From Gemmatimonadota bacterium (GTDB lineage: Bacteria; Gemmatimonadota; Gemmatimonadetes; Gemmatimonadales; Gemmatimonadaceae): a stretch of 34,464 nt of DNA. The notes under the pieces are model-generated. The model saw only the letters and a program-made list of their open reading frames with translations, had not been told where the DNA came from and did no database searches. The position numbers and the translations under genes are program-made. The DNA lies in the NCBI GenBank assembly GCA_016794835.1, contig JAEUJL010000635.1, positions 1 to 34,464 on the forward strand, in the 5' to 3' direction. Positions 1,666 through 8,996 of this stretch are shown here, piece after piece; positions within the stretch are counted from its first letter, which is position 1; each line of letters begins with the position of its first letter.

Positions 1666-2112
1666 TCATCGCCGGACGCGCCCCAAACGGCTGACGGTCA
1701 CCGTTTCGGTGGCCAGTCCGCGTGCCACGATCAGCCGCGCGTTGGCTGCGCCGTACCCCAGGCCCACCGGACTCCAGGCGATGGAGTCGCGCGTGGTGGA
1801 CAGCCTCACGCCGAACACCGCGCCAAGGTCGTGGACTGCCACCGTCTCGGTACCGGCGACGATGGACAACCGCGCGCCAGCCGTGTCCATGAGGAGCGCC
1901 GTGCGATGGCTGCGGCGGACGGCATGGTCGCGCGCATCCAGCATGGCCCGCACCGACTGGGCGGCGGCCCCTTCGGCGGCCAGCCGGTCTTGTGCCGCGC
2001 GAAACGGTGGGAGGGCCACGACGGCGGCCAGGCCGAGCAGGACGAGGGCGAGCAGCAGCTCGGGAAGCGAAACCCCGGGCCGACCACCTAACGATGAGTG
2101 CCGAGCGGGCAT
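1666..2112 (-). CDS. type IV pseudopilin, GspH/FimT-like
   Basis: The ATG at 2112 gives a 148-residue protein with a classic short class III prepilin leader: basic residues, then G-VSLPE with glutamate at mature position 5, then an unbroken hydrophobic helix (about 20 residues of L, A and V). Prepilin peptidase would cut after that glycine. The remainder, with short beta-rich segments, fits a minor pseudopilin that primes a type II secretion or type IV pilus pseudopilus. The frame can be extended upstream to a GTG at 2241, but that would give a 57-residue leader, so I prefer 2112. No other pilus or secretion gene lies nearby, so it is an orphan here. It is convergent with the helicase and divergent from the lipoprotein gene. 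Confidence 0.72.
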   Translation of the reverse strand: MPARHSSLGGRPGVSLPELLLALVLLGLAAVVALPPFRAAQDRLAAEGAAAQSVRAMLDARDHAVRRSHRTALLMDTAGARLSIVAGTETVAVHDLGAVFGVRLSTTRDSIAWSPVGLGYGAANARLIVARGLATETVTVSRLGRVRR

Positions 2113-2228
2113 GAACCCAAGCTGGCGCGCACGGCGCGGCCTGTCGTGCCCGATTCGCGGCGATGGGTGCCGGATCGAGGCAACGGAGGGCACTTCCCGC
2201 ACTCCCGGGTCGCCAGTAGCGTTGAGGC

Positions 2229-2477
2229 ATGCGCCCCTCACACCGTGCCGCGTTCGGCGTGCTGCTCTCGTTGGCCATGGCCTGTGGCCTGCCCCGCCAG
2301 GACGATCTCAACCTGGCCCAGCAGGTGGCGGAGACGACCGAAGTGCTGCAGGCCATGCAGGAGGCGCAGCTGGACCTCAACGACCGGATCGACTCGCTCG
2401 CCCGCGTCGTCCAGGTGCAGGACTCGCTCATCCGCATGATCGCCAACCTGAGCGGAAACCCTCTCCCTCCCCGCTGA
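2229..2477 (+). CDS. small coiled-coil lipoprotein, unknown function
   Basis: The product has 82 residues. A short basic start is followed by a hydrophobic segment ending in L-A-M-A-C at residue 19, which reads as a (slightly atypical) lipobox, so the mature protein would be lipid-anchored and about 64 residues long. The mature part is charged and heptad-like (many L, V, Q, D, E), consistent with one short coiled coil. I recognise no family. Its stop TGA at 2475-2477 shares its final A with the ATG of the selenoprotein gene (TGATG), so the two are probably translationally coupled. Confidence 0.65.
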   Translation: MRPSHRAAFGVLLSLAMACGLPRQDDLNLAQQVAETTEVLQAMQEAQLDLNDRIDSLARVVQVQDSLIRMIANLSGNPLPPR

Positions 2478-2713
2478 TGCGCGTGACCATCGAGTACTGC
2501 GTGATGTGAAACTACGAGCCTCGGGCCGCCGGTCTGGCGGTCGAGATTCGCACGACATACCCGCAGGCAACGGTCGAGCTGTTACCCTCCTCGGGCGGCC
2601 GCTTCGAGGTGACCTGCGACGGGGTCCCGATCTTCCAGAAGTCGGTCGTCCGTCGCCATGCGCACCCGGGGGAGGTCGTGAAGCTCCTCGCCTCGGTCGA
2701 TACTCCTTCCTAG
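2477..2713 (+). CDS. SelW-like (Rdx family) selenoprotein with in-frame UGA = selenocysteine
   Basis: Reading from ATG 2477 to TAG 2711-2713 with the UGA at 2507-2509 as selenocysteine gives 78 residues. The N-terminus is MRVTIEYC-V-M-U, the C-x-x-U (usually C-x-x-C) redox motif after a first beta strand, followed by NYEPRA. Further on come a second strand ending in LLPSSGGRFEV, then DG-x-x-IFQK and a C-terminal helix. This is the order and length of the thioredoxin-fold SelW/Rdx family, thought to act in thiol redox reactions. Downstream of the UGA the conserved residues continue in the same frame to the natural family end, which excludes a real stop. A hairpin with a GGUCU loop follows the UGA (separate entry). 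If the UGA were a stop, only a 10-residue peptide would remain. The start overlaps the lipoprotein stop (TGATG); pfkA follows 42 bases later. Confidence 0.9.
2520..2545 (+). promoter_or_regulatory. SECIS element for selenocysteine insertion (within the selenoprotein CDS)
   Basis: The hairpin begins 10 bases after the UGA codon. The lower stem CTCGG (2520-2524) pairs with TCGAG (2541-2545), the innermost of these pairs being G-U. G2525 is bulged. The upper stem CCGCC (2526-2530) pairs with GGCGG (2536-2540). The apical loop is GGTCT (2531-2535). A GGUCU loop on a short GC stem above a one-base bulge is what SelB recognises in the E. coli fdhF SECIS. The match in loop, bulge and distance from UGA strongly supports selenocysteine decoding. 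SelA, SelB and tRNA-Sec would be encoded outside the window. Confidence 0.87.
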
Positions 2714-2755: not shown

Positions 2756-3835
2756 ATGCGCATAGCAATCTCCACCGGTGGCGGTGACGCGCCCGGGCTC
2801 AACGCCGTGATCCGCGCCGCCGTCCTCAGCGCCACCAGCCGTGGCTGGGATGTGCTGGGCATCTGCCGCGGCTACTTCGGGCTGCTGGGCGAGGACGAGA
2901 TCATCCCGCTGACACGTGACCGGGTGCGCGGCATCGCCCATCTCGGGGGGACCATCCTGCGCACCACCAATCGCGGGAATCCATTCGCCTTTCCGGTGCG
3001 GCAACCCGACGGTAGTTGGGTGGAGATCGACCGGTCGGGGGAGCTGCTCTCGACCATCGAGCGGCTCGGCATCGACGCGATCATCACGATTGGCGGCGAT
3101 GGTTCGCTGCGCATCGGCCAGCAGCTCCACGAGCGCGGCGTCCGGATCGTCGGGGTGCCGAAAACGATCGACAATGACGTGGCCGGGACGATCACGACCT
3201 TCGGGTTCGACACGGCGGTCAACACGGCGATCGAGGCGATCGACAAGCTGCACACCACGGCGGAGTCGCACGAACGCGTCATCGTGATGGAGGTGATGGG
3301 ACGGCATGCGGGCTTCATTGCGCTCCACGCCGGGGTGGCCGCCACCGCGGACGTGATCCTGATTCCGGAGGTCCCGTTCGACATCGAGAAGGTCTGCGCG
3401 AAGGTGCGTTCGCGCGATCGCAGTGGGCAGCGCTTCTCGATCGTCGTCGTGGCCGAGGGGGCGTTTCCGGTCGGCGGGCAGGAGGCGATCATGGGATCGT
3501 CGCTCCCTGGCCAGGACAAGCGCGTGGGCGGCATCGCAAGCCGGATTGCCTGGGAGATCCAGGAGCGCACGGGCAAGGAAGCGCGCTCCCTCGTCCTCGG
3601 ACACCTCCAGCGTGGCGGCTCGCCGACGGGATACGACCGCCTGCTCGCCACCCGGTTTGGCGGTGCGGCGGTCGAGGCCGTGGAGCAGAAGAAGTGGGGG
3701 CACATGGTCGCCCTGCAGTCGCCCCACATTGTGGCGATCCCGATTGCCGACGCGATCGGTGCCCCCCGGCGCGTCGAGCTGACCCACGACATCGTGCGCA
3801 CGGCACGTGCGGCGGGCATTTCCTTCGGCGACTAG
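2756..3835 (+). CDS. pfkA: 6-phosphofructokinase (group III type, probably ATP-dependent)
   Basis: The 359-residue protein phosphorylates fructose 6-phosphate in glycolysis. Family motifs are all present: the N-terminal TGGGDAPGLNAVIR, GGDGS at 113-117, PKTIDND at 135-141 with the catalytic aspartate, EVMGRHAG at 179-186 and LGHLQRGGSPTGYDR in the C-terminal half. The residue matching E. coli Gly104 is glycine (G116), as in ATP enzymes, while the residue matching Gly124 is lysine (K136), as in pyrophosphate enzymes. This mix occurs in group III PFKs and leaves the phosphoryl donor slightly open, with ATP preferred. There is no strong Shine-Dalgarno before ATG 2756. It follows the selenoprotein gene closely and may be co-transcribed. 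Confidence 0.95.
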   Translation: MRIAISTGGGDAPGLNAVIRAAVLSATSRGWDVLGICRGYFGLLGEDEIIPLTRDRVRGIAHLGGTILRTTNRGNPFAFPVRQPDGSWVEIDRSGELLSTIERLGIDAIITIGGDGSLRIGQQLHERGVRIVGVPKTIDNDVAGTITTFGFDTAVNTAIEAIDKLHTTAESHERVIVMEVMGRHAGFIALHAGVAATADVILIPEVPFDIEKVCAKVRSRDRSGQRFSIVVVAEGAFPVGGQEAIMGSSLPGQDKRVGGIASRIAWEIQERTGKEARSLVLGHLQRGGSPTGYDRLLATRFGGAAVEAVEQKKWGHMVALQSPHIVAIPIADAIGAPRRVELTHDIVRTARAAGISFGD

Positions 3836-4402: not shown

Positions 4403-7081
4403 ATGCGCAGCAACGTTCGCGATCGCTCGCTCCCCCCGGACCACGAGGCATTCCTCGCGGCCAAGCCGCCAACCGGGCGCGTCATCATCATCGCCCCCAC
4501 GCGCGCCGCGTGCGAGACCATCGAGCTCGCGCTGGGGCTCCACATCGACACGGTGCTGGAGCGAGAACACGGCGAGGAGGTCCGGGCCCTCGCGCGCGGG
4601 GGGCGCGGGTTCGGGATCGTCGCCGGGACCGGCACGGGAAAGACGCTCGCCGTGCGTCCCATCGCCGAGGTGATCCTCGGCACGACCGAGCTGCGGGTGG
4701 GGGTGGTGAATCGCGAACGCGAGGCCACCCCGGAGACGCCGACGTGGAATGTCATCATCGTCACCACCGGGATCGCGCGCCGGTGGTTCATGGACGGCGA
4801 CATCCTGCCCGGCGACACGCTCGTCATCGACGAGATCCACCAGACCTCGGCCGAGCTGGAGCTGTGCCTCGCGTTAGGCAAGCGCGTGGGCTGCCGCTTC
4901 ATCTGGCTGTCCGCGACCGTCGACCCGTCGTTCTACGCCCGGTACCTGGAGGCCGCGGACATCGTCCACAGCACGGCCTTTGACCCGTCGCGGGCCGCCG
5001 ACGTGCGGGTGGTGCGCCGGGACCCGGCGGAGTTCCTCGACGACAAGTTCCTGCAGCAGGTGATGCGCGAGCGTCGCGGGGTGGGGATGTTCCTGCCGAC
5101 GCGCGCGGCGGTGGAGCAGGTCGCCGCGGTCGTGGGGGACCGGTTCCGCCGGATCACCAGCGCCTTCTACCATGGCGGCGAGCCGATCCGCGTGATCCGC
5201 CCGTTCCTCGAGGAGGGCGCGCCCAAGCCGTTCTTCCTCGCCATGACCGCCGCCGGACAAAGCGCCTTGAACATCAAGGGGCTCGATACCGTCATCATCG
5301 ACGACACCCGGTTTGCCAATGTCGTGGAGCGCGGAAAGAACGTGCTCACGCGCCTCCACCTCGGCACCAACGAGATCCTCCAGATGGCGGGCCGGGTGCA
5401 CGGCCGGGTGGAGGGCGGCCGGGTCTACCTGCTCACCGACCGCGACATCGTGTTCGCCGCCCTCCGGCCAACCCCGCCCGAGTTCCAGCTGGGTGGTGAC
5501 TCGGAGCGCGTGGCACTCACCTGTGCCGGGCTGGGCGTGCGGGCCGATACCCTGGACCTCCCCGTCCAGCTGGATCGCATCGCCTATCGCAAGGCGCTGG
5601 CGCGCCTCGAGGAACGCGGCCTGGTCGAGAACGGTCGTCTCTCGCGGTACGGGAAGATCGTGGAGTCGCTGCCGGTGGAACGGCCGTGGGCCGAGCTGAT
5701 CGCCCATGGCGAGGATCGCCTGATGCCGTACCTCGCCGTGATGGCGAGCATCGAGAGCCTGCACCGGATGACGCGGGAGCAGCGCGACCTCGAGGGGTTG
5801 GTCGTGGCCGGGAGCGATCACCTCACGGCCTACAACGTGTATGCCGAAGCCTTCCGCAAGGCGGGCTACCTCGGCGAGGTCTACGGCCTGCCCCGGCACC
5901 TCTTCGACGAGGCGATGATGGCCTCGTGGGCCGACCGCCGCGGTGTCCTCGTCAAGGCGGTGGAGGATGCCGCCCTGGCGATGGCGAGTGTCTGTCGCGC
6001 CGTCGGGGTCCCGCTGCCGGAGGCCATGCCGCCGGCTGATGAGGCGGTGCGCCGCGCATTCTGCGACCTCGTCGCTCGCATCATGCCGTTCGACCTCGTG
6101 ATCGACGAGGCGACGGTGGACGGGCAGGAAGCCCGCGTCTCGAAGACGAGTGTGTGTGGGTCCTGGGGGGCGGTCGCGGGGTCGCTGCGGTACTTCGCCG
6201 ACCGGTTCGGCAACCCGCGCGCGTCGATCGAGGGCACGCAGCTGCCGAGGGACCTCGTGCACAAGTACGCCGTCCGCGGGGCGGCCGAGGTCACCTACGC
6301 CGGCGACGAACGGCGTGACGCCGTCATCCGGCGCGAACGCGTGACGTACTTTGGCTTTGAGCTGGAGCGCGAGGAGACCTTCCTCGACGAGTTCCACGAC
6401 GAGGAGGGCGAGGCCGCGCGGCGCGCACTCGCCGAGGCGCTGGCCCGGGAAGAGGCACGCCACCCCGCCGTGCGCGCCAACCGGCGTGACATCGATGAGG
6501 TGCGTGAGTGCTATCGGCGGAGTGGCGGCGTCACCCCGCGACTCGGACTGGCGGAGCTGCGCGCGCGATATCTCGAAGCGCTGGCCGGTGTGCGGTCCGT
6601 GCGCGAGTACCGGGCGGCGGCGCTCCGGCTCGACCTCCGCGGGCTCGTGGACGCCGAGACGCGCGCACGCCTTGCCGAGCTCCCCGGCGAGACGCTGGTC
6701 CGCGAGCAGGCGGTCGGCATCGAGTATGACGTGGAGGAGCCCACGGACGGCCCGGTTGTGGGTGTCGCGCGCCTCGTCCTTCCGGAGAAGCTCGCGCGTT
6801 CGCTCGTGATGGAGGAGGTCCCGCGCCTCGATCGACCGGTGCGTTTCGTCGTGCATCGCGGCCAGCGCGGCAGCGTGCGCGCGGCGACCCTCGACGAATT
6901 GCAGGAGTTGCTCGACCGGCCGTGGTCGCCTGAGGAGACCAGCCGGCGTCGCCAGCGCGAGGAGGAGGGGCGCCGGAAGCAACGCGACCGGGATAACGCC
7001 CGCTCTCGCGGGGAACTGGACCGGTTCCGGCGGTCCCGGGACCGGTCGCGGGTGTCGCCGAAGCGACGCGGGAAGCGTTAG
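4403..7081 (+). CDS. divergent DExH-box (HrpA/HrpB-like) ATP-dependent helicase
   Basis: This 892-residue protein has Walker A AGTGTGKT (74-81), a DEIH box (143-146) after VTTGIARRWFM, SAT (170-172), a motif V-like segment (MTAAGQSALNIKGLDTVIID) and a motif VI-like QMAGRVHGR. The order matches DEAH/DExH RNA helicases. The middle (about 390-520) resembles their winged-helix and helical-bundle region (DLPVQLDRIAYRKALARLEERGLV). The C-terminus has an HrpA-like GIEYDVEEP-DGP segment and a final 50-residue tail rich in R, K and E that probably binds nucleic acid. Motif VI departs from the usual QRxGRxGR: its first arginine is methionine and one residue is inserted. A PTRAACETIELAL segment sits before Walker A rather than after it. 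Substrate unknown. Its TAG stop overlaps the stop of the convergent GNAT gene. Confidence 0.85.
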   Translation: MRSNVRDRSLPPDHEAFLAAKPPTGRVIIIAPTRAACETIELALGLHIDTVLEREHGEEVRALARGGRGFGIVAGTGTGKTLAVRPIAEVILGTTELRVGVVNREREATPETPTWNVIIVTTGIARRWFMDGDILPGDTLVIDEIHQTSAELELCLALGKRVGCRFIWLSATVDPSFYARYLEAADIVHSTAFDPSRAADVRVVRRDPAEFLDDKFLQQVMRERRGVGMFLPTRAAVEQVAAVVGDRFRRITSAFYHGGEPIRVIRPFLEEGAPKPFFLAMTAAGQSALNIKGLDTVIIDDTRFANVVERGKNVLTRLHLGTNEILQMAGRVHGRVEGGRVYLLTDRDIVFAALRPTPPEFQLGGDSERVALTCAGLGVRADTLDLPVQLDRIAYRKALARLEERGLVENGRLSRYGKIVESLPVERPWAELIAHGEDRLMPYLAVMASIESLHRMTREQRDLEGLVVAGSDHLTAYNVYAEAFRKAGYLGEVYGLPRHLFDEAMMASWADRRGVLVKAVEDAALAMASVCRAVGVPLPEAMPPADEAVRRAFCDLVARIMPFDLVIDEATVDGQEARVSKTSVCGSWGAVAGSLRYFADRFGNPRASIEGTQLPRDLVHKYAVRGAAEVTYAGDERRDAVIRRERVTYFGFELEREETFLDEFHDEEGEAARRALAEALAREEARHPAVRANRRDIDEVRECYRRSGGVTPRLGLAELRARYLEALAGVRSVREYRAAALRLDLRGLVDAETRARLAELPGETLVREQAVGIEYDVEEPTDGPVVGVARLVLPEKLARSLVMEEVPRLDRPVRFVVHRGQRGSVRAATLDELQELLDRPWSPEETSRRRQREEEGRRKQRDRDNARSRGELDRFRRSRDRSRVSPKRRGKR

Positions 7082-7590
7082 GCGGCGGGGAGGTCCACGG
7101 TGTACGTCTCCGTGCGCACCTCCTGGAAGCCGCGCGCGAGGTAGTTGGGGAGCGCCGCCGGGGCGTCCAGCGTGCAGGTGTGGAGCCAGACGCGCTCGGC
7201 ACCCATGGATTGCGCCTCGGCGATCGCGCGCTCGAGCATCCATCGGCCCAGGCCGCGACCCTGCGCGAAGTCCTTCAGGCCGAAGTACGCAATCTCGACG
7301 GCCGTACCGACCTGGGAGAGCTCCACGTAGCCACCCGCCTGGCCGTCCACGTCCAGCACAAAGACGCGGGTCGACGGTGACGCGACCAGCTGGGCCCACT
7401 GCGCCTCCGGCCAGGGCAATCGATCGTGCCACGCGTAGTCGGCACCGACCTCGAGGTAGAGCTGGCGCGTCTCGCGCCAGGCCGTGGCATCGAGCGGGCG
7501 CCATGCCGTGCCGGGTTTCGGGGGCGCCAGGGGCGGGGCGATCCCCTTTGCGAGCTCGAGGTAGGTCCGGGTGACCGTGGTGACAGGCAT
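7078..7590 (-). CDS. GNAT-family N-acetyltransferase
   Basis: From ATG 7590 the protein has 170 residues. The C-terminal half shows a GNAT core: a strand with RVFVLDVDGQAGGYVEL, a beta bulge, then the acetyl-CoA loop in FAQGRGLGRWMLERAIAEA (Q/R-G-x-G-x pattern) and a final strand pair with RVWLHTCTLD and ALPNYLARGFQEV. It should transfer an acetyl group from acetyl-CoA to an unknown amine. A TTG at 7641 would add 17 residues upstream of the fold, so I prefer 7590. The stop codon (TAA on the minus strand, 7078-7080) overlaps the helicase stop TAG (7079-7081). Confidence 0.85.
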   Translation of the reverse strand: MPVTTVTRTYLELAKGIAPPLAPPKPGTAWRPLDATAWRETRQLYLEVGADYAWHDRLPWPEAQWAQLVASPSTRVFVLDVDGQAGGYVELSQVGTAVEIAYFGLKDFAQGRGLGRWMLERAIAEAQSMGAERVWLHTCTLDAPAALPNYLARGFQEVRTETYTVDLPAA

Positions 7591-7662
7591 GAAGGACTCT
7601 GATGGATTCTGGAAGAAAACGGCGCTCACAGTTGGCAGCAATTGTACCCTCAGGTCCTAAAA

Positions 7663-7692
7663 TTTGTATGAGAGTAAATGCCTATTTGACAA
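7663..7692 (-). promoter_or_regulatory. candidate promoter for the GNAT gene
   Basis: On the minus strand TTGTCA (7692-7687) is followed after 18 bases by TACAAA (7668-7663). It is the most AT-rich part of the divergent GNAT/TetR gap and would give a leader of roughly 65 bases. This is motif matching only. Confidence 0.33.
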
Positions 7693-7744
7693 CAGGTTAG
7701 AGGCATGGTCGGCGTTTCTGTCGGGAGCCTGGGCTTGCGTTTTT

Positions 7745-7758
7745 GGACTGACTAGTCC
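7745..7758. promoter_or_regulatory. candidate TetR operator (inverted repeat)
   Basis: GGACT (7745-7749) and AGTCC (7754-7758) form an inverted repeat with a 4-base spacer, ending 12 bases before the TetR start codon. TetR repressors commonly bind such palindromes next to their own gene, so autoregulation is plausible. The arms are short and the assignment rests on position. Confidence 0.4.
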
Positions 7759-7770
7759 TAATTAGGGTCC

Positions 7771-8367
7771 ATGAAGGACACCCGAGGGCGGATTGTCAGC
7801 GCGGCGGCAGGGTTGATCGCCGAGAAGGGGTTCAAGCGAACCTCTGTCGATGATGTCATCGAGCGCGCGGACCTGAGCGGAAAGAGCCACTTCTACCACT
7901 ACTTCAAGTCCAAGGAGGAACTCGGACTCGAGGTGCTGGGACGACAGTTCGAGTCGTTTGCCGAACGGGGGCTCGTGATCCTTCGGGAGCCACTGATCCA
8001 CCCGATGGAACGGCTCCACCTGTTCATCGACTCGCTGGTGGCGTTGCAGACGGAGCGCGGCTTCCGCGTGGGCAGTCCCTTCGGCACCCTCGCGACCGAG
8101 ATGGCCGACCTGCACGAGGGGTTCCGGGAGCGCCTGGTCCAGGTGTTCGATCGTTGGGCGGCGCAGATCGAGGCCCTCCTGTGGGAGGCGCGCCCGATGC
8201 TCAACCCGGACGCGGACACGCGCCGGTTGGCGCGGTTCCTCATCGCCACGCTCGAAGGGGCGTTGATGATGTCGAAGGTGAATCGGGACGCCGAGATGCT
8301 CCGCGCCATTGCTGCTGACCTGAAGCGATTTGTCTCCTCCCACCTGCGCGAGGGTGTGCCCGCATGA
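7771..8367 (+). CDS. TetR/AcrR-family transcriptional regulator
   Basis: The 198-residue protein has an N-terminal TetR helix-turn-helix: RGRIVSAAAGLIAEKGFKRTSVDDVIERADLSGKSHFYHYFKSKEEL, about residues 5-50, with the family's F-Y-x-Y-F-x-S-K-E signature. The rest is a helical ligand-binding and dimerisation domain with no diagnostic ligand residues. It is probably a repressor relieved by a small molecule. Its stop overlaps the start of the ECF sigma factor gene (ATGA at 8364-8367), so both are made from one transcript. An inverted repeat just upstream may be its own operator. Confidence 0.92.
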   Translation: MKDTRGRIVSAAAGLIAEKGFKRTSVDDVIERADLSGKSHFYHYFKSKEELGLEVLGRQFESFAERGLVILREPLIHPMERLHLFIDSLVALQTERGFRVGSPFGTLATEMADLHEGFRERLVQVFDRWAAQIEALLWEARPMLNPDADTRRLARFLIATLEGALMMSKVNRDAEMLRAIAADLKRFVSSHLREGVPA

Positions 8368-8996
8368 CCGCTGTCCTGGAGTTCGATGTCACCGAGGCGC
8401 CGGGGGGCGGTGCGCCGCGCGTGGACGATTTCGCGCGCGAGGGGTTCGAGGCCGCGGCCCAGCGCCAACTCGCGCCCTTGTACTCCTTTGCCCTCAAGCT
8501 GTCGCGGAACCCGGACGACGCGGAGGACCTTGTCTCCGACACGTACCTGCGAGCACTCGAGCGATGGCACCAGTTCCGGCCGGGGACCAACATGCGGGCG
8601 TGGCTCTTCACGATCCTCTACCACGTGTTTGTCAGTCGCAAGCGACGGATCAGCGCGCGGGAGGTGCTATCCACGGACGATCCCGATAGCCCGGTCGGGC
8701 CGGAGACGCTCGTGGGGGACGCGGACCCGGAGGGGGCGTTCTACGACTCGTTCATCGACGAGGAGATCGTCGCGTCGATCGAGGCCCTCCCGTCGGAGTA
8801 CCGCACTGCGGTCCTCATGAGCGATGTGCACGGCATGCGCTACGCGGACATCGCCGAGGTGCTGGGGGTTCCCGAGGGCACGGTGAAGTCGCGCCTCTTT
8901 CGCGGACGTCGCATCCTGCAGCGTCGCCTGCGGGACTACGCGGTCGCCGGCGGCTACGTCCGCGGCGCGGTGCTTCAGCCCTCTGGCGCGTCCTGA
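8364..8996 (+). CDS. RNA polymerase ECF sigma factor (sigma-70 family, region 2 + region 4)
   Basis: The 210-residue protein has region 2 at about 37-95 (LYSFALKLSRNPDDAEDLVSDTYLRALERW, then NMRAWLFTILYHVFVSRKRR) and region 4 at about 138-190 (IEALPSEYRTAVLMSDVHGMRYADIAEVLGVPEGTVKSRLFRGRRIL), with an acidic linker between. It directs RNA polymerase to an alternative promoter set. No anti-sigma factor gene lies next to it, which is unusual for the class; the partner is a TetR gene overlapping by four bases, so control may be transcriptional. Its last 22 bases overlap the 3' end of the convergent CGNR gene. Confidence 0.93.
   Translation: MTAVLEFDVTEAPGGGAPRVDDFAREGFEAAAQRQLAPLYSFALKLSRNPDDAEDLVSDTYLRALERWHQFRPGTNMRAWLFTILYHVFVSRKRRISAREVLSTDDPDSPVGPETLVGDADPEGAFYDSFIDEEIVASIEALPSEYRTAVLMSDVHGMRYADIAEVLGVPEGTVKSRLFRGRRILQRRLRDYAVAGGYVRGAVLQPSGAS

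What the first reader, a model, noticed from the sequence alone, without database searches (positions are those of the whole stretch)
2477..2713. Hidden selenoprotein: SelW-like protein with C-V-M-U and a fdhF-like SECIS
Seen: an in-frame UGA at 2507 lies in the position of the second cysteine of the Rdx C-x-x-C motif. The same frame continues 67 more codons with SelW-like residues (NYEPRA, SSGGRFEV, IFQK) to a TAG. Ten bases after the UGA is a bulged hairpin (2520-2545) with a GGUCU loop on a CCGCC/GGCGG stem. Known: SelW-like proteins exist as C-x-x-U forms, and E. coli SelB reads a GGUCU apical loop. Inference: the organism decodes UGA as selenocysteine, and standard gene calling will drop this gene or replace it with a wrong-frame ORF at 2506-2787.
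Basis: partly seen in the sequence, partly recalled or inferred. Interest (0 to 1): 0.88.

Follow-up and report, generated by a model that had tools for sequence, protein, structure and literature searches.

The report
Selenoprotein W gene in Gemmatimonadota
The stop-like codon in this small gene is read as the rare amino acid selenocysteine, making a SelW-type redox protein that about half of the sampled Gemmatimonadota carry; the reading is right, but the protein kind is already known from other bacteria.

Summary
An in-frame TGA (2507-2509) sits at the second position of the Rdx/SelW C-x-x-[C/U] motif, and the frame runs on to TAG (2711-2713). Read through, the 78-residue product matches Pfam Rdx (70 bits) and NCBIfam SelT/W/H models above their curated cut-offs. 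The codon is TGA in all 37 orthologues from 60 relatives and in all 80 orthologues from named Gemmatimonadota records; none has Cys or a truncation. A 7-bp hairpin 14 nt downstream of the TGA is kept by compensatory changes and by rare synonymous codons. It meets the published bacterial SECIS model. The genome has tRNA-Sec and, next to it, selD, itself with one in-frame TGA. selA and selB were not found in this 82%-complete draft, but both occur in congeners. Across the 60 genomes every SelW carrier has at least two of selA/B/C/D, and the 15 genomes with none have no SelW. SelW-like CxxU selenoproteins have been known in bacteria since 2005. This is a phylum-wide set of new members of a known kind, with a conserved link to pfkA.

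The parts
2477..2713 (+). selW-like gene (Rdx family), 78 residues, ATG start overlapping the previous stop (TGATG), TAG stop
   Evidence: PF10262 70.1 bits, NF041051 94.8 bits (cut-off 88), TIGR02174 59.9 bits
2498..2509 (+). redox motif C-V-M-U (TGC GTG ATG TGA); Cys8 and Sec11
   Evidence: direct reading; TGA in 37/37 and 80/80 orthologues
2507..2509 (+). TGA read as selenocysteine
2524..2542 (+). bacterial SECIS element: 7-bp stem 2524-2530/2536-2542, apical loop GGUCU 2531-2535, loop 21 nt after the UGA
   Evidence: fold; covariation; codon bias; bSECIS constraints in PMC13188914
2229..2477 (+). upstream small lipoprotein-like ORF overlapping the selW start; conserved in close relatives
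   Evidence: tblastn 35-52% identity beside selW in the best-matching related loci, 16 loci hit; no family hit
2756..3835 (+). pfkA (6-phosphofructokinase), directly downstream on the same strand
   Evidence: PF00365 344 bits; downstream of selW, same strand, in 59 of 77 named loci

Best explanation
The locus is a genuine selenoprotein gene of a Gemmatimonadota bacterium. UGA 2507-2509 is decoded as selenocysteine by tRNA-Sec and SelB, directed by the hairpin just downstream. The product is a 78-residue SelW-like Rdx protein with the thioredoxin-like redox motif Cys8-x-x-Sec11. It most likely acts as a small thiol/selenol oxidoreductase cycling through a selenenylsulfide. Shown here by sequence evidence: the frame, the family, conservation of TGA, conservation of the RNA stem, and co-occurrence with the Sec machinery. 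Inferred: actual Sec insertion and the redox activity. The substrate, and any link to phosphofructokinase, are unknown.
For: The product with Sec read through matches Rdx over its whole length and the NCBIfam SelT/W/H (seleno)protein models above cut-off. All 37 orthologues among 60 relatives, and all 80 from the named GTDB contig scan, have TGA at this codon; none has Cys or a truncation there. Terminal stops are TGA in 23 of the 37 genes, so UGA has not been reassigned. The stem pairs in 95.4% of cells; 17 cells change on both sides, which 0 of 500 shuffles reached. Pair 18-36, formed by two third-codon positions, switches G-C, A-U and C-G. Loop codons are rare ones: 16/16 Ser are AGT (background 7.7%), 16/17 Gly are GGT (12.8%), 37/37 Leu are CTG or TTG. 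tRNA-Sec (66.6 bits) and a selD with one TGA lie side by side in this genome. Across 60 genomes 37/37 SelW carriers have at least two sel genes, against 8/23 non-carriers, Fisher p 9e-9 (the genomes are related, so this p overstates independence).
Against: selA and selB were not found in the window's own assembly, with family models or with a congener's proteins. That assembly is 82% complete in 894 contigs. No protein-level evidence exists. One stem pair (22-32) is A-C in 7 of 37 sequences.
Confidence: 0.97

Rival explanations
1. The gene is a decayed Rdx pseudogene truncated by a nonsense TGA, or a sequencing error.
For: The frame has a stop, and selA/selB are missing from this draft.
Against: TGA at the same codon in all 117 sequences examined (37 + 80, with some overlap between the sets), with the protein conserved on both sides.
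Confidence: 0.01
2. UGA is reassigned (for example to Trp or Cys) throughout the genome, rather than recoded as Sec.
For: The frame reads through one TGA.
Against: TGA is the terminal stop of 23 of 37 orthologues and of the neighbouring ORF 2229-2477. tRNA-Sec with a UCA anticodon is present. A conserved hairpin follows this TGA.
Confidence: 0.005
3. The gene is a Sec gene by ancestry, but this species has lost selA and selB, so the UGA is now a dead stop or poorly decoded.
For: Neither selA nor selB found in G000.
Against: The draft is 82% complete. selC and a TGA-containing selD are intact, and the SECIS and protein are conserved. Congener G004 likewise lacks selA in a 74%-complete draft. 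Relatives lacking the whole Sec set have no SelW at all.
Confidence: 0.02

Closest known systems
Bacterial SelW-like selenoproteins (SELENOW-like, PF10262 Rdx, CxxU)
   Same: Family, CxxU motif with Sec at the second position, bacterial SECIS directly downstream; among the commonest bacterial selenoproteins in marine metagenomes (PMC1088965, PMC2398784; listed in PMC13188914).
   Different: Here found as a phylum-wide Gemmatimonadota set next to pfkA, which none of the papers read here describes.
NCBIfam NF041051 SelTWH_Campy
   Same: P0001 scores 94.8 bits against a cut-off of 88; 12 of 12 orthologues tested match at E <= 0.001.
   Different: The model name points to Campylobacter; these members are from another phylum.
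E. coli fdhF SECIS
   Same: Apical loop GGUC(U) in this copy, on a short GC stem about 20 nt after the UGA (fdhF from own knowledge).
   Different: No conserved bulged U as in fdhF; the loop varies as R-G-[U/G]-Y-U among orthologues.
Cys-type Rdx/SelW-related proteins (2fa8, 2obk, 2oka, 2p0g)
   Same: Homologous over residues 2-57.
   Different: The two whose alignments were shown (2fa8, 2obk) carry CxxC; a separate Cys paralogue (C-T-G-C) exists in G013.

Membership tests
SelW-like selenoprotein (Rdx, PF10262) | Profile match over the whole domain | tested here: met
   70.1 bits vs cut-off 22.6, residues 2-71, profile 1-72/74
SelW-like selenoprotein (Rdx, PF10262) | CxxU motif with in-frame UGA at the second Cys position | tested here: met
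   C8-V-M-U11; TGA in all sequences examined, 37/37 and 80/80
SelW-like selenoprotein (Rdx, PF10262) | Sec actually present in the protein | not testable with these tools
   needs 75Se labelling or mass spectrometry
Bacterial SECIS (bSECIS model, PMC13188914) | Apical loop 3-9 nt, upper stem 4-16 bp | tested here: met
   5-nt loop, 7-bp stem
Bacterial SECIS (bSECIS model, PMC13188914) | G in the first two loop positions | tested here: met
   GGUCU here; G at loop position 2 in 37/37 and 80/80
Bacterial SECIS (bSECIS model, PMC13188914) | 16-37 nt between UGA and loop; MFE <= -7.5 kcal/mol | tested here: met
   21 nt; -16.8 to -20.6 kcal/mol
Sec-decoding trait in the same genome | tRNA-Sec (selC) | tested here: met
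   C406:23306-23398, 66.6 bits, anticodon tca
Sec-decoding trait in the same genome | selD | tested here: met
   C406:22247-23170, 383.5 bits, with one TGA
Sec-decoding trait in the same genome | selA and selB | tested here: inconclusive
   not found in the 82%-complete draft; both present in congeners G002 and G003, selB in G004

The most novel reading that the evidence does not exclude
In Gemmatimonadota SelW is obligately Sec-dependent: the gene is lost with the Sec machinery and never converted to Cys, whereas SelD in the same lineages switches between Sec and non-Sec forms. Its conserved place beside pfkA suggests a redox role tied to glycolytic control.
Probability: 0.3. Interest if true: 0.45.

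Novelty: new member of a known kind. Interest (0 to 1): 0.3.

Why it matters
It shows the Sec-decoding trait and a SelW selenoprotein spread widely through a phylum found here mostly in soil and water metagenomes. None of the selenoprotein papers searched for the phylum's name here mentions it. Because the gene holds an in-frame TGA, gene callers are likely to miss it. It also gives a clean set of about a hundred orthologues for studying SECIS evolution and the absence of Sec-to-Cys conversion.

Tried and rejected
Pseudogene or sequencing error: rejected, because TGA is conserved across the phylum. Genome-wide UGA reassignment: rejected, because TGA is also the terminal stop of many of the same genes. 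Rfam scan of the window: nothing reached a gathering score, so the SECIS was tested by fold, covariation and codon bias instead. Papers naming Gemmatimonadota with SelW-like proteins: none found. In a first pass minus-strand loci were read in the wrong orientation; this was corrected and one search is not used.

Full report
Observation. The window (G000:C805, a draft genome of 4.33 Mb in 894 contigs, 82% complete) holds ATG 2477, TGA 2507-2509 and TAG 2711-2713 in one frame. Read through, the product is MRVTIEYCVMUNYEPRAAGLAVEIRTTYPQATVELLPSSGGRFEVTCDGVPIFQKSVVRRHAHPGEVVKLLASVDTPS. It matches Pfam Rdx at 70.1 bits, and NCBIfam NF041051 (94.8 bits, cut-off 88) and TIGR02174 (59.9 bits, cut-off 34.2). 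Solved CxxC homologues align over residues 2-57. The wrong-frame ORF 2506-2787 exists and matches no NCBIfam family.

Organism. A scan of the GTDB contig collection with the orthologue alignment found 181 relatives. Of the 80 best kept, 79 have titles naming Gemmatimonadota, Gemmatimonadetes or taxa within them (Gemmatimonadaceae, Gemmatimonadales, Gemmatimonas), and one is an unidentified bacterium. The window's own record is not shown by name, so its placement rests on these relatives.

Conservation of the codon. Among 60 genomes (this one and 59 relatives), 37 have an Rdx orthologue and every one has TGA at this codon. The one TGA-free hit is a separate C-T-G-C paralogue in G013. In a phylum sample 193 of 395 genomes have an Rdx hit; of the roughly 150 matches listed, all but five have exactly one TGA, and the weaker matches were not listed. 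All 80 named loci have TGA; some of them are the same records as in the set of 37. In 23 of the 37 genes the true terminal stop is also TGA, so UGA is both Sec and stop in the same gene and the code has not been reassigned.

The SECIS element. A 7-bp stem (2524-2530 with 2536-2542) and the loop GGUCU (2531-2535) begin 14 and 21 nt after the UGA. On the ungapped alignment of 37 orthologues the stem is paired in 95.4% of cells, with 17 double-sided changes. None of 500 shuffles reached either value, and sliding the partner by 1-3 columns drops pairing to 17-61%. The outermost pair joins two third-codon positions and switches among G-C, A-U and C-G. Loop codons are strongly non-random: Ser AGT 16/16 against 7.7% background, Gly GGT 16/17 against 12.8%, Leu CTG or TTG 37/37 against 47%. 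The loop family is R-G-[U/G]-Y-U, not a fixed GGUCU. [quoted passage not shown] PMC13188914) are all met.

Machinery. tRNA-Sec lies at C406:23306-23398 (66.6 bits, anticodon tca) beside selD at C406:22247-23170, which itself carries one TGA. selA and selB were not found in this draft; the best selB-like matches score far below that family's cut-off. Congeners G002 and G003 have both, and G004 has selB. Over 60 genomes all 37 SelW carriers have at least two of the four sel genes, and the 15 genomes with none of the four have no SelW. SelD in the same set is mixed: of 43 full-length matches 32 have a TGA and 11 have none (counted by eye). SelW was never found in a Cys form of this subfamily among the matches examined.

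Context. The order DEAD-box helicase, minus-strand pilin-like ORF, small lipoprotein-like ORF, selW, pfkA is kept in close relatives. In 59 of 77 named loci with room, pfkA follows selW on the same strand within about 110 nt. The start ATG overlaps the stop of the small upstream ORF (TGATG), which suggests translational coupling (inference).

How it works. Best reading: SelB with Sec-tRNA-Sec recodes the UGA at the hairpin, giving a thioredoxin-fold Rdx protein whose Cys8/Sec11 pair cycles as a selenenylsulfide. Sec insertion and redox activity are inferred; substrate and partners are unknown.

What is known. SelW-like CxxU selenoproteins were the most abundant family in the Sargasso Sea set (PMC1088965) and the most numerous prokaryotic family in the GOS table (PMC2398784). 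They have few Cys homologues in Sec-containing organisms (PMC1794560). SelW genes were also reported as completely missed in the annotation of some epsilonproteobacteria (PMC4607533). No paper found links them to Gemmatimonadota, but only open-licence papers were searched. Novelty is therefore modest.

Noticed in passing
L098 (G000:C406) 7215-8258 and 8307-8399: selD with an in-frame TGA (CAGUAAKLG) sits directly upstream of tRNA-Sec; the same neighbourhood recurs in several relatives.
   Followed up: partly
relatives: SelD switches between TGA and non-TGA forms within one family, unlike SelW in the same genomes.
   Followed up: partly
L104 (G017) and L105 (G042): Two relatives have SelW copies with an altered C-terminal half (apparent frameshift, internal deletion) but intact CxxU and SECIS.
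   Followed up: no
L002 (G013), also G369, G080, G213, G098: A second Rdx form without any in-frame stop, with a higher Pfam score; the G013 copy carries C-T-G-C, and the form co-exists with the Sec form in G013, G369 and G098.
   Followed up: partly
window 4403-7081: 892-aa conserved protein downstream of pfkA (up to 79% identity in relatives) with only a marginal DEAD-helicase match.
   Followed up: no
window 1666-2241 (-): Conserved minus-strand ORF with a pilin-like N-terminal segment (PGVSLPELLLALVLLGLAAV) between the helicase and the small lipoprotein-like ORF; no Pfam hit.
   Followed up: no
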